Shown one piece after another: positions 1-4,947 of a stretch of 5,353 nt of DNA (its first letter is position 1; each line of letters opens with the position of its first letter). The notes below the pieces were generated by a model that saw only the letters and a list, made by a program, of their open reading frames with translations, searched no databases and was not told the origin of the DNA. This DNA is from Burkholderiales bacterium (lineage in GTDB: Bacteria; Pseudomonadota; Gammaproteobacteria; Burkholderiales; Casimicrobiaceae), in contig JAITMH010000165.1 of NCBI GenBank assembly GCA_031277445.1, forward strand, positions 1-5,353, in the 5' to 3' direction. The translations under genes and the position numbers were made by a program.

Positions 1-1408
1 CGGCTATCGCGTCGGGTTGTACATGTCGCCGCATTTGCTGTGCTACAACGAGCGGGTGCGCCTTAATGGTGTTGACGCCAGCGACGCGGCGCTGTGCGAA
101 GCGTTTGCGGCGGTGGAGACGGAGCGGATGGGAAAAGTAGCGGGCGGGATTTCGATTCAAGCGCCGTCACCTTTTTTCCTTCTTTTTCGCGGGGGAGGGT
201 GCCCTGACAAACCCACGCCCGTCTTCGACGCGCACCCCCTTTCAAAAGGGGGCAGGCGCGGCATGCCCGAAGCGTCGGAGATTCCTCTCACTTATTTTGA
301 ATTCGGAACTTTGGCGGCGTTCTGGCTGTTCGCACGTGCGCCGCTCGATGCCTGGGTGCTGGAAGTCGGTCTTGGCGGACGGCTTGATGCGGTGAATGTG
401 GTGGATGCCGATGTTGCCGTGGTGACCGCCGTCGATATTGATCACACCGAATATTTGGGTACTGACCGCGAAGCCATCGGCTACGAAAAAGCCGGAATCG
501 CCAGACGCGGGCGTCCGCTGATTTGCGGGGATGCCGACCCGCCGGAAAGCCTGCGCCGCGAAGTCGCGGCAATCGGAGCGCGGGCGCAATACCTTGGTGT
601 CGATTTCGGCGTGGAAAAAAGGGATGACGCACAATGGCGTTATTGGTGGCGGGAGAGTAAAAGCCCTCTCTTTCAAGAGGCTGCCGCAAAAGCCCCTATT
701 TCTCTCCTTCCCCCGCTTGCGGGGGAAGGCCGGGATGGGGGGAATCGTAGTCAAATCAATCTATTGTGTGCAGACTTGCCCCCTCCCCAACCCTCCCCCG
801 CAAGCGGGGGAGGGGGTTTCGCAAAGGGGGCAAGGCGCGAACGACTTTACCCGTCGCCGGTATTGGCCGGGGAGCATCAATACGGCAATGCGGCGGTAGC
901 GATTGCGGCGCTGGATTGCGTGAGCGACCGTTTGCCGCTTTCCGACGCGGTTAAGGCGCAGGGCTTGCGCGACGTGCGCCTGGCCGGGCGGCTGCAAATC
1001 GTGCGCCAGCAACCGTTCATCCTGTGCGATGTCGCGCACAATCCGCATGCCGCACGGGCGTTGGCCGCGTATCTTCGGGCGCAACCGCAGCGGTTTTCGC
1101 GGTCGGTCGCCTTGCTCGGCATGCTGGCCGACAAGGACGCGACCGGCGTGATTGCCGACGTGCGCGATGTGTTCGACGACTGGTGGGTCGCGCCGCTGCC
1201 GGGGCCGCGTGGTGGCAAGACCTCCCGCCTGATCGACGCGTTGTCAGCCAACGGAATCGCGGCGGCGCACATCCGGGTTTTCGACAGCGTGACGGCGGCG
1301 TGCGCGTATGGCGCGTCATCATTGGCCGGGACTGATAGAATGGCTGTGTTCGGTTCGTTTTTGACCGTCAGTGAAGCGTTGTCGTATTATCCTGAAAACC
1401 GCAGTTGA
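1..1408 (+). CDS. folC: Bifunctional folylpolyglutamate synthase/dihydrofolate synthase FolC, 5'-truncated by window edge, with two repeat-derived in-frame insertions
   Basis: Cytoplasmic ATP-dependent ligase that adds glutamate to dihydropteroate and to folates. The reading frame is open from base 2, so the gene enters from the left. The visible start GYRVGLYMSPHLLCYNERVR is the family segment just after the ATP-binding P-loop, so roughly 50-60 N-terminal residues are missing. A TTG at 17 is in frame but is internal sequence, not the start. Family motifs follow in order: LTYFEFGTLAAFWLFA (about 291-338), LEVGLGGRLDAVN (about 359-397), EKAGI (about 485-499), HQYGNAA (about 875-895), DVAHNPHAA (about 1028-1054), LLGMLADKD and the near C-terminal VFGSFLTVSEAL. 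About 464 residues are visible, against about 420 for a whole typical FolC; the excess lies in two low-complexity stretches near 131-277 and 652-838. The last seven codons and the stop lie in an inverted-repeat arm. The motifs suggest it is functional. Confidence 0.95.
   Translation, partial: GYRVGLYMSPHLLCYNERVRLNGVDASDAALCEAFAAVETERMGKVAGGISIQAPSPFFLLFRGGGCPDKPTPVFDAHPLSKGGRRGMPEASEIPLTYFEFGTLAAFWLFARAPLDAWVLEVGLGGRLDAVNVVDADVAVVTAVDIDHTEYLGTDREAIGYEKAGIARRGRPLICGDADPPESLRREVAAIGARAQYLGVDFGVEKRDDAQWRYWWRESKSPLFQEAAAKAPISLLPPLAGEGRDGGNRSQINLLCADLPPPQPSPASGGGGFAKGARRERLYPSPVLAGEHQYGNAAVAIAALDCVSDRLPLSDAVKAQGLRDVRLAGRLQIVRQQPFILCDVAHNPHAARALAAYLRAQPQRFSRSVALLGMLADKDATGVIADVRDVFDDWWVAPLPGPRGGKTSRLIDALSANGIAAAHIRVFDSVTAACAYGASSLAGTDRMAVFGSFLTVSEALSYYPENRS
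131..277 (+). repeat. In-frame repeat-derived insertion 1 in folC
   Basis: About 49 codons separate AFAAVETERM from EIPLTYFEFG. In family members as I know them, these two blocks are joined by only a few residues. The inserted peptide (for example APSPFFLLFRGGG and HPLSKGGRRG) resembles no FolC sequence I recognise. The DNA contains a perfect 8-bp inverted repeat, CCCCCTTT at 235-242 and AAAGGGGG at 245-252, around a 2-base loop, and a pyrimidine-rich stretch at 170-187. The edges are estimated from protein conservation and could shift by several codons. The reading frame is preserved throughout. Confidence 0.7.
235..252. repeat. Short palindrome CCCCCTTT-ca-AAAGGGGG
   Basis: Perfect 8-bp arms with a 2-base centre, inside folC insertion 1. 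Its C-run/G-run build is like the palindromes at 706-729, 791-814 and 4876-4896, but with a different centre, so it may belong to a separate subfamily. Confidence 0.75.
706..729. repeat. REP-like palindrome A in folC
   Basis: Arms CCTTCCCCCGC (706-716) and GCGGGGGAAGG (719-729) are perfect reverse complements around a TT centre. The flank 722-740 continues as a G-rich stretch that matches the reverse complement of 4865-4883 at 16 of 19 bases, with only transition differences, linking it to the spacer repeat. Confidence 0.85.
775..834. repeat. Nested REP-like palindrome B in folC
   Basis: The inner arms are CCCTCCCCCGC (791-801) and GCGGGGGAGGG (804-814) around AA. The outer arms are CTTGCCCCCT (775-784) and AGGGGGCAAG (825-834). 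All are perfect, so the 60-base unit folds into a two-step hairpin. It differs from palindrome A mainly at the centre (AA against TT) and one arm position. It lies wholly inside the folC reading frame. Confidence 0.85.
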
Positions 1409-1508
1409 CCGCTTGTAAATGTATGGAAAACCGCATGGTGTGGCTTTGAGGGCTTTTGCGCCATTCACCCATTGGGTGAGCACGTCCAACTGCGGTTTTC
1501 AGGATAAT
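1386..1508. mobile_element. 123-bp element with perfect 22-bp terminal inverted repeats (MITE-like candidate)
   Basis: Bases 1386-1407 are the exact reverse complement of 1487-1508, with core CCTGAAAACCGCAGTTG on the left and CAACTGCGGTTTTCAGG on the right. The 79-base interior has a second copy of GAAAACCGCA (1426-1435, also at 1394-1403) and a small palindrome, TCACCCA at 1465-1471 against TGGGTGA at 1473-1479. No convincing coding sequence lies inside. Size and termini fit a non-autonomous transposon derivative. No clean target-site duplication is visible (flanks GTCGT and GCCGT are similar but not identical), so mobility is inferred. The long stem could also act as an RNA hairpin at the end of folC. 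Confidence 0.65.
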
Positions 1509-1586: not shown

Positions 1587-2168
1587 ATGAAAGACGACAA
1601 TCTTCAGGAAATGGCGCTCATTGATGAGATGAAGCGACGCAATCGGCGGCGTCTGGTGGGCGCTGTTGTGTTGGCAGTGTGTGCGGTGATTTTTGTGCCG
1701 ATGTTGCTCGAAAAAGAACCGGCGCCGCTGGGAGACAATGTAGAAATTTTAATCCCGCCGGTTGTCGGAACGACTTTGCCGGACACTGCGCCGCCAGTGA
1801 CGGAACCTGTTGCGCCGCCGGAAGCGGCGCCGGCAGAACCCCCGAAGGAAACACCCAAGGAAACACCGAAAGAGACACCTAAGGAAGTTCCGAAAGCGGC
1901 ACCGAAAAAATTGCCGTCAACGGTAGCCTTTGCCAAGGGAACTTATTCGGTGCAATTGGCGGCTTTTACCGACGACAAAGGCGCCAACGCCATGGTGAAC
2001 CGGATCAAGCGCGCCGGTTATCCCGCGTACAACGAGCCGACCGATACGACACGTGGCATGGCCTGGCGGGTGCGGGTCGGCCCGTACAAAACCCGCGAAG
2101 ACGCGGCGGTTGTGCGTGATCGCCTGAAGAAGGACAGCTACGACGGTATGATCGTGCCTGCCCGCTGA
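1587..2168 (+). CDS. dedD: DedD-like SPOR-domain cell-division protein
   Basis: A 193-residue bitopic inner-membrane protein. Residues 1-22 are short and cytoplasmic with a basic cluster (KRRNRRR). Residues 23-41 form one transmembrane helix, followed by a Pro/Ala/Glu/Lys-rich periplasmic linker. A C-terminal SPOR domain (about 118-192) carries the usual YSVQLAAF start and WRVRVGPYKTREDA core. SPOR domains bind denuded septal glycan strands, so a role at the division septum is likely. Residues 86-101 are a tandem tetrapeptide repeat (PKET three times, then PKEV). ATG 1587 is chosen because it gives the normal cytoplasmic tail; the ribosome site is weak (ACAGG at 1576-1580). The gene lies 178 bases after folC, a gap mostly taken up by the inverted-repeat element, and 6 bases before cvpA. 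The folC-dedD-cvpA-purF order supports the name; the SPOR assignment itself is firm. Confidence 0.9.
   Translation: MKDDNLQEMALIDEMKRRNRRRLVGAVVLAVCAVIFVPMLLEKEPAPLGDNVEILIPPVVGTTLPDTAPPVTEPVAPPEAAPAEPPKETPKETPKETPKEVPKAAPKKLPSTVAFAKGTYSVQLAAFTDDKGANAMVNRIKRAGYPAYNEPTDTTRGMAWRVRVGPYKTREDAAVVRDRLKKDSYDGMIVPAR
1842..1889 (+). repeat. Tandem 12-bp coding repeat (PKET/PKEV) in the dedD linker
   Basis: Four consecutive 12-base units (1842-1853, 1854-1865, 1866-1877, 1878-1889) encode PKET, PKET, PKET and PKEV, followed by decayed PKAA and PKK. Codons vary between units (CCG/CCC/CCT, AAG/AAA, GAA/GAG), so the repeat is not a fresh duplication. It sits in the flexible linker between the membrane helix and the SPOR domain. 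Confidence 0.9.
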
Positions 2169-4736: not shown

Positions 4737-4820
4737 CGTAGGCTGGGATGGAGCGTAGCGTAATTCCAGCACTTTGGACTCTTGAAGCTGGGATTTCACT
4801 TCGTTTCATCCCAGCCTACG
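4737..4820. repeat. 84-bp near-palindromic dispersed-type repeat after rraA
   Basis: Arms 4737-4770 and 4787-4820 (34 bases each) are reverse complements at 28 of 34 positions around a 16-base spacer. The outer 14 bases (CGTAGGCTGGGATG / CATCCCAGCCTACG) are perfect. It starts two bases after the rraA stop. The layout GTAGG-CTGGGATGGAGCG-TAGCGTAA is like dispersed palindromic repeats I recognise from many proteobacterial genomes, though I cannot give a family name. The transcript could fold into a long hairpin that protects or ends the rraA mRNA; there is no U tract, so it is not called an intrinsic terminator. A short tandem TACGGTTC follows its right edge (4817-4832). Confidence 0.8.
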
Positions 4821-4850
4821 GTTCTACGGTTCTTCGCTCCGCGCAGAATG

Positions 4851-4947
4851 GCAGAGCAACCCATCCCCACCCCAGCCCTCCCCTTGAAGGGGAGGGAGCC
4901 TCCGCGTATCTCCCCGCCTTCGCGGGGGAATGGGTTATGCGCTCTGC
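4851..4947. repeat. REP-like compound palindrome between rraA and panD
   Basis: The outer arms GCAGAGC-AACCCAT (4851-4864) and ATGGGTT-atgc-GCTCTGC (4930-4947) pair fully except for a 4-base bulge (4937-4940). Inside are CCCTCCCCTT (4876-4885) with AAGGGGAGGG (4887-4896), and CCCCGC (4912-4917) with GCGGGG (4922-4927). The left part (4866-4883) matches folC insertion 2 (781-798) at 16 of 18 bases, so it is the same repeat family. The right outer arm covers the panD stop and last codons. With the neighbouring palindrome it fills the spacer between convergent genes; a role in ending transcription from both sides is possible but unproven. Confidence 0.8.

What the first reader, a model, noticed from the sequence alone, without database searches (positions are those of the whole stretch)
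652..838. REP-like palindromes translated inside folC
Two perfect 11-bp-arm palindromes, one nested in a further 10-bp inverted repeat, sit in frame in an enzyme gene, between conserved FolC blocks. REP-type repeats are normally intergenic; in-frame insertion recalls the Rickettsia palindromic elements that are kept inside proteins. The frame stays open and the downstream motifs (HQYGNAA, DVAHNPHAA) are intact, suggesting the host protein tolerates about 60 extra Pro/Gly-rich residues, probably in a surface loop.
Basis: partly seen in the sequence, partly recalled or inferred. Interest (0 to 1): 0.7.

Follow-up and report, generated by a model that had tools for sequence, protein, structure and literature searches.

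The report
Palindromic repeats inside bacterial housekeeping enzymes
In an uncultured betaproteobacterium, palindromic DNA repeats that are likely mobile sit in frame inside the folate-enzyme gene folC and at least ten other genes, mostly housekeeping ones, where they are predicted to be translated into floppy extra protein loops, a habit best known from Rickettsia.

Summary
Of nine other genus genomes with a readable folC, seven lack both; G003 and G004 carry other repeats at the same sites. folC flanks are under purifying selection with or without inserts (dN/dS 0.11-0.17). An AlphaFold model folds the FolC core and leaves both inserts disordered. The stretch recurs: an aroE copy lies in the same frame, and the palindrome pattern (up to 2 mismatches) has 72 places in the draft genome. 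A second element, a 194-bp MITE seen in 8 of 11 genus genomes and 0 of 49 others of the family, sits in frame in prmC, recJ, mfd, hypF and nnrD. prmC is cleanest: 204 bp inserted, empty in 10 of 10 sister genomes. Eleven genes carry in-frame repeats between family-matched halves. It works like the Rickettsia palindromic elements. In-gene REPs outside Rickettsia are already in print (PMC3733652), so this is a new variant of a known kind. Translation is inferred; no mobilising enzyme was found.

The parts
2..1408 (+). folC (folylpolyglutamate/dihydrofolate synthase), the only folC over the cut-off in the draft genome; 5' end missing at the contig edge
   Evidence: Foldseek top hits E. coli FolC 1w7k/1w78
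149..268 (+). site-1 insert, in frame (aa about 50-89): degenerate head of the 194-bp MITE followed by another palindromic repeat (CACCCCCTTTCAAAAGGGGG)
   Evidence: Absent in 8 of the 9 other genus folC aligned; the ninth, G003, has a different repeat insert; head compared by eye with the MITE heads; model pLDDT below 50 at aa 49-88
659..822 (+). site-2 insert, in frame (the reported feature): palindrome-pair element of about 164 bp
   Evidence: 89% and 91% match to the aroE copies G000:C118:3900-4070 and C46:1-161, ends read by eye; absent from 7 of 9 other genus folC, other repeats in G003 and G004
706..729 (.). palindrome 1, CCTTCCCCCGC-TT-GCGGGGGAAGG
791..814 (.). palindrome 2, CCCTCCCCCGC-AA-GCGGGGGAGGG
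706..814 (.). outer imperfect inverted repeat joining the two palindromes (arms 706-744 and 776-814)
   Evidence: RNA fold
851..1387 (+). conserved FolC C-terminal part downstream of the insert (HQYGNAA, DVAHNPHAA)

Best explanation
Palindromic repeats of at least two kinds sit in frame at two sites of folC and in at least ten other genes of this genome, where they most likely arrived as small non-autonomous mobile elements and are predicted to be translated as disordered loops that the host enzymes tolerate. Shown here: repeated sequence, open frames, empty sites in sister species for folC and prmC, folC flanks under purifying selection, and one shared reading frame in unrelated genes. Inferred: that they jumped (rather than spread by recombination), that ribosomes translate them, and that the enzymes still work. 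Mechanism proposed: an element lands anywhere; copies that break a needed gene are lost, while copies that fall into a solvent-exposed loop, in a stop-free frame and with a length divisible by three, survive because the Pro/Gly-rich peptide does not disturb the fold. Afterwards the peptide drifts under weak constraint, and later elements pile into the same permissive loop.
For: folC: 56 extra codons at site 2 against G007; segment lengths at both sites are multiples of three in all 10 genus folC. G003 and G004 hold other repeats at site 2, G003 also at site 1. folC flank dN/dS 0.110-0.170 in all 21 pairs of seven genus genomes, 328 codons, same range with and without inserts. Shared inserts are looser: 0.70 over 51 codons for folC G003/G004; for an epimerase 2.35 over 53 codons (few synonymous changes, so unstable) against 0.157 over 313 flank codons. 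The palindrome-pair element is in aroE in the same orientation and frame. prmC: 204 extra bp, empty in 10 of 10 sister genomes, between E. coli HemK residues 157 and 165; recJ and mfd inserts fall between aligned blocks of solved structures. Family matches on both sides: FolC, AroE (two contigs), TrpE, Mpl, PrmA, PrmC, HypF, NnrD, RecJ, Mfd and, weakly (35.7 bits, one model spanning), a sugar epimerase on C48. Of 30 MITE copies found by a frame-blind DNA search, I class 10 as in-gene: 5 with family matches on both sides, 4 downstream only (epimerase, PgeF, PriA at a contig edge, Rlu type), 1 without a match (BioC-like). All 10 lie element-forward; 9 read one common frame throughout and the Rlu type enters it halfway (NnrD read from its peptide, the printed phase being off by an alignment gap). 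FolC model: both inserts below pLDDT 50, most other 10-residue blocks 85-98, some 57-76, residues 10-16 also below 50.
Against: No proteomic or expression data. The genome is a 73%-complete draft in 211 contigs. No autonomous copy: by eye, no inward-facing end pair 0.8-3 kb apart among the matches listed for 11 genomes. No clean target-site duplication at prmC. Frame-0 openness alone barely separates in-gene from other copies (10 of 10 against 14 of 20, Fisher p 0.07), other frames are often open in the core, and 2698 of 5000 shuffles of the consensus have a stop-free frame. The consensus has one stop-free frame of six with the end letter I chose, two with the majority letter. In G003, among 30 copies, five in-ORF copies read the common frame by eye (M3-peptidase-like, epimerase, FolC, GcvT, ABC transporter) but two (L279, L296) read another; these were not family-scanned. 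Three of 11 genus genomes (G005, G008, G009) show no match to the insert peptide. BioC-like (L180/L217, scanned with NCBIfam and Pfam), MidA-like (L341) and a membrane protein (L343) gave no family match and are not counted. The PrmC model was unusable (mean pLDDT 38).
Confidence: 0.87

Rival explanations
1. The inserts are removed after transcription or skipped in translation (self-splicing RNA, intein-like excision or ribosome bypass at the strong hairpins), so the mature enzymes lack them.
For: Strong RNA hairpin over the folC insert; inserts land in core enzymes.
Against: Open frames and lengths divisible by three at folC and prmC, and a shared frame in unrelated genes, are not needed if the stretch is skipped. 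No Rfam match in the window at gathering threshold. At 40-70 residues the inserts are shorter than known inteins (recalled).
Confidence: 0.05
2. Assembly or binning artefact: repeats joined unrelated pieces.
For: Fragmented draft; contigs C46 and C118 break at the aroE copy and C121 starts inside the PriA copy.
Against: Both halves belong to the same gene, in order and in frame, within one contig in ten of the eleven counted genes; G003 and G004, separate genomes, show repeat inserts at the same folC sites; database proteins not from this genome carry the peptide inside GlmU, NadD and GcvT.
Confidence: 0.03
3. The insert-bearing genes are decaying pseudogenes that happen to be still open.
For: One draft genome; relaxed change inside the inserts.
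Against: folC flank dN/dS 0.11-0.17, equal to lineages without inserts; FolC motifs kept by eye; no second folC over the cut-off in the draft. Flank selection was measured for folC and one epimerase only.
Confidence: 0.03
4. The inserts are exapted: the extra loop has a function (regulation, binding, stability) kept by selection.
For: Shared sites across species: folC sites 1 and 2, an epimerase site in G000 and G003, GcvT in two proteins.
Against: Different, poorly conserved sequences at the same folC site; insert dN/dS 0.70 or higher; predicted disorder.
Confidence: 0.08

Closest known systems
Rickettsia palindromic elements (RPE; described in PMC10969869, passages seen; original papers by Ogata and colleagues not read, PMC186582 not held)
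   Same: Palindromic repeats of about 150 bp with an ORF, in frame inside many unrelated genes.
   Different: Host is a betaproteobacterium; at least two element kinds here, one with clear terminal inverted repeats. Sequence relation to RPE families was not tested.
Intragenic GTAG/CGTC REPs (PMC3733652, passages and section 15 seen)
   Same: REPs inside ORFs of several species (O. terrae, Thauera, Xanthomonas and others), often dimers, sometimes two per gene, REP-encoded stretches of 43 to 82 aa, and a shared recB site in two Xanthomonas species.
   Different: I saw no GTAG or CGTC tag beside the two folC site-2 palindromes (by eye); here the in-gene load includes a TIR-ended MITE, with the empty prmC site seen in ten sister genomes.
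MITEs in coding sequence: QMITE of Coxiella burnetii (PMC5896051, passages seen), ERIC/RU elements of enterobacteria (PMC2759123, passages seen)
   Same: Short mobile repeats, some fused in frame with host ORFs.
   Different: The QMITE passages I saw describe mostly gene-end overlaps, and in-frame middles in hypothetical proteins; here the inserts are internal to known enzymes.

Membership tests
Rickettsia palindromic element (RPE) | Found in Rickettsia | tested here: not met
   Genus holds UBA931, class Betaproteobacteria
Rickettsia palindromic element (RPE) | Palindromic element inserted in frame into unrelated protein genes | tested here: met
   11 genes with family matches on both sides
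Rickettsia palindromic element (RPE) | Sequence homology to a described RPE family | not tested
   No RPE sequences fetched
MITE | 70-300 bp with terminal inverted repeats and no transposase gene | tested here: met
   Consensus 194 bp from 14 of 24 aligned copies; ends match 18 of 20 with the end letter I chose, 17 of 20 with the majority letter
MITE | Many dispersed copies | tested here: met
   66 DNA match rows in G000 and 71 in G003, self and opposite-strand rows included; end pattern in 8 of 11 genus genomes, 0 of 49 others of the family
MITE | Target-site duplication | tested here: inconclusive
   prmC empty-site alignment does not resolve one
MITE | Autonomous partner element with the same ends | tested here: inconclusive
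   No inward end pair at 0.8-3 kb among the matches listed, up to 2 mismatches; the genomes are drafts that break at repeats
REP with RAYT transposase | Short palindromes at many places | tested here: met
   72 places with up to 2 mismatches, control 0
REP with RAYT transposase | GTAG or CGTC tag at one end | tested here: inconclusive
   None beside the two folC site-2 palindromes by eye; other repeat kinds not examined
REP with RAYT transposase | Repeats flank a Y1/RAYT gene | tested here: inconclusive
   Y1_Tnp in 9 of 11 genomes, 18 matches; none of three repeat patterns in the loci of 8 of those 18 matches

The most novel reading that the evidence does not exclude
A betaproteobacterial genus repeats the Rickettsia story: a genus-restricted 194-bp MITE, together with other palindromic repeats, has lodged in frame in eleven or more genes of one genome and evidently in many of a second, landing again and again in the same permissive loops, so that selfish DNA is a steady source of new disordered protein segments in a small-genome lineage.
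Probability: 0.72. Interest if true: 0.72.

Novelty: new variant of a known kind. Interest (0 to 1): 0.62.

Why it matters
In-frame selfish DNA is best known from Rickettsia. Here eleven related genomes offer filled and empty versions of the same genes, so insertion sites, frame selection, loss and drift can be followed gene by gene. It also warns that gene callers and structure pipelines will meet REP peptides (PSPPAPLPQGERGA, LSPRGRGCPEGAGEG) inside real enzymes, and it marks loops of FolC, PrmC, RecJ and Mfd that may tolerate insertions, of use to protein engineers if the enzymes prove active.

Tried and rejected
Ordinary conserved loop: rejected. Known RNA family: none at gathering threshold in the window. 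RAYT link: Y1 genes exist in 9 of 11 genomes, but none of three repeat patterns lies in the 9 loci looked at, which cover 8 of 18 Y1 matches; open. Autonomous MITE: not found. Selection on the element itself for an open frame: not supported, since 2698 of 5000 shuffles of the consensus have at least one stop-free frame, and frame-0 openness differs only weakly between in-gene and other copies. ORF length as proof of a gene: rejected, since long antisense ORFs occur; only family matches were counted. Of 13 ORFs flagged in the sample, 6 were judged spurious (4 without a Pfam hit, 2 by eye, not scanned), one (BioC-like) has no family match, and RlpA has the repeat upstream of its start. PrmC structure model: unusable. 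Gene-end cases (yceD shortened beside a copy, glnE ending in one) were not counted as internal. Literature searches; no listed title or abstract reports such a betaproteobacterial genus, but most subscription papers are not held.

Full report
What was checked. The window is the whole contig C98 (5353 bp) of a 1.34-Mb, 73%-complete draft genome in 211 contigs. Its genus (11 genomes held) includes UBA931, an unclassified betaproteobacterium: locus L083 (DBDN01000044.1, 25,479 bp) has the contig length and folC position of G009:C67. Neighbouring genes are purF, rraA and panD over their cut-offs and, weakly, a dedD/SPOR-type and a cvpA-type gene. folC runs 2-1408 and is the only locus over the family cut-off.

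The observation. The palindromes 706-729 and 791-814 are perfect, with 11-bp arms; 50 shuffles of the window gave none. They pair with each other over 39 nt at 82%, and the region folds strongly as RNA.

Two inserts, not one. Of 60 genomes searched, 58 had a FolC match, and 30 loci were kept. In the alignment of those 30 (10 genus sequences counting the window, 20 from the rest of the family and order) the window's FolC has an insert at aa about 50-89 and another at about 218-277. G001 gave only a weak match and is not in the alignment. At DNA level the site-2 segment is 273 bp here against 105-132 bp in seven genus genomes, and 258 and 246 bp in G003 and G004, which hold other repeats; the site-1 segment is 195 bp here, 216 in G003 and 57-78 in the other eight. 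All lengths are multiples of three. Outside the genus, L062 has extra residues at site 1 and L081 at site 2; I did not examine whether they are repeats.

The host gene is alive by sequence. Nei-Gojobori dN/dS over 328 flank codons is 0.110-0.170 in all 21 pairs of seven genus genomes, with no shift in the three insert-bearing ones. The insert shared by G003 and G004 at site 2 has 0.70 over 51 codons; an epimerase insert shared by G000 and G003 has 2.35 over 53 codons, with very few synonymous changes, against 0.157 in 313 flank codons. The low synonymous difference in that insert (0.08 against 0.43 in the flanks) suggests independent arrival, conversion between copies, or hairpin constraint; I could not separate these.

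Structure. AlphaFold2 with 17 sequences gave mean pLDDT 77; residues 49-88 and 222-272 (and 10-16) are below 50, while 336 of 468 are at 70 or more. Site 1 lies between helices 28-44 and 98-112, site 2 between strands 211-217 and 278-284, i.e. where a hairpin turn would be. Foldseek returns E. coli FolC structures first.

Repeats in the genome. DNA 652-846 gives 66 match rows in the own genome, self and opposite-strand rows included. The two long ones, C118:3900-4070 and C46:1-161, are the ends of two contigs whose ORFs are the two parts of aroE (positions 5-194 of one shikimate dehydrogenase model upstream, 204-274 of 279 of another downstream), in the same orientation and frame as in folC. 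The two ends differ at a few positions, so treating them as one site assembled twice is an inference. aroE has a further repeat insert upstream.

A second element. Comparing inserts led to a larger element. The copy in pgeF/yfiH (L175:717-941) gives 66 match rows in the own genome and 71 in G003. The alignment of 24 copies shows ends TAGAGCGGTTTYGGTTYAAG and their complement. The consensus, from 14 of the copies, is 194 bp; 18 of 20 end bases match and one of six frames is stop-free if A is taken at the second base, 17 of 20 and two of six with the majority G. The end pattern with up to 2 mismatches is in 8 of 11 genus genomes and in 0 of 49 other genomes of the family. A protein search with the insert peptide agrees: 8 of 11 genus genomes, none in G005, G008 and G009.

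In-gene copies. A sample of 41 contigs, 265,101 bp, flagged 13 ORFs with internal repeats; those with family support are FolC, TrpE, Mpl, PgeF and PrmA, the PgeF match lying only downstream of its insert. C46 and C118 were put in the sample because they were hits, so they must be left out of any rate. The frame-blind top 30 MITE copies add PrmC, HypF, NnrD, RecJ and Mfd with family matches on both sides, an epimerase and PriA with a match downstream only (PriA starts at the contig edge), and an Rlu-type synthase with the copy in its N-terminal linker. A second epimerase, on C48, has one weak model spanning the insert. Counted with matches on both sides: FolC, AroE, TrpE, Mpl, PrmA, PrmC, HypF, NnrD, RecJ, Mfd and the C48 epimerase, 11 genes.

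A second genome. In G003, the best 30 MITE copies include in-ORF ones that read the common frame by eye (M3-peptidase-like, the same epimerase, FolC, GcvT, an ABC transporter); two more, L279 and L296, read another frame. These ORFs were not family-scanned.

The cleanest case. prmC has 204 extra bp in G000 against the 240-bp empty form, with both element ends recognisable; all 10 sister genomes have the empty site, with 228-240 bp where G000 has 444. Against E. coli HemK the insert falls between residues 157 and 165. RecJ and Mfd inserts also fall between aligned blocks, between residues 209 and 219 of 8y30 and 369 and 406 of 6xeo.

Elsewhere. A search of 5.8 billion proteins with the pgeF insert peptide returned 11 proteins from 47 candidates. 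The rest include GlmU, a ferredoxin-NADP reductase, NadD and a second GcvT.

Compared with what is known. This works like the Rickettsia palindromic elements (PMC10969869, passages). In-gene REPs in O. terrae, Thauera, Xanthomonas and others are described in PMC3733652 (section 15), so in-frame REP decoration is not new. What differs is the host, the TIR-ended element, the load in known enzymes and the empty sites in close relatives. Translation, tolerance and transposition remain inferred.

Noticed in passing
window 1386-1508: A perfect 22-bp inverted repeat (79 nt apart) overlaps the 3' end of folC and supplies its last codons (YPENRS; several sisters end YAVS). Its 20-base core was found in no locus other than those of this contig among the 345 fetched; the whole genome was not searched for it.
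   Followed up: partly
window 4739-4935: Between rraA and panD: an inverted repeat (GTAGGCTGGGATG...CATCCCAGCCTAC) and further CCCTCCCC-type palindromes, one with 10-bp arms at 4876-4896.
   Followed up: no
window 1834-1905: DedD/SPOR-type protein has a short PKETPKETPKE tandem repeat in its linker.
   Followed up: no
L235 893-1579 and L237 94-148: yceD seems to end about 30 residues early beside a reverse MITE copy, with an rpmF-like frame behind it; glnE ends inside a reverse copy that gives its last residues and stop codon.
   Followed up: partly
L213 and L272: The same epimerase carries a MITE at the same place in G000 and G003, but the inserts differ less than synonymous sites of the flanks do, hinting at re-insertion or conversion.
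   Followed up: partly
L204/L345 (G000:C126): The best Y1 transposase match of the own genome has a TGA inside its frame.
   Followed up: no
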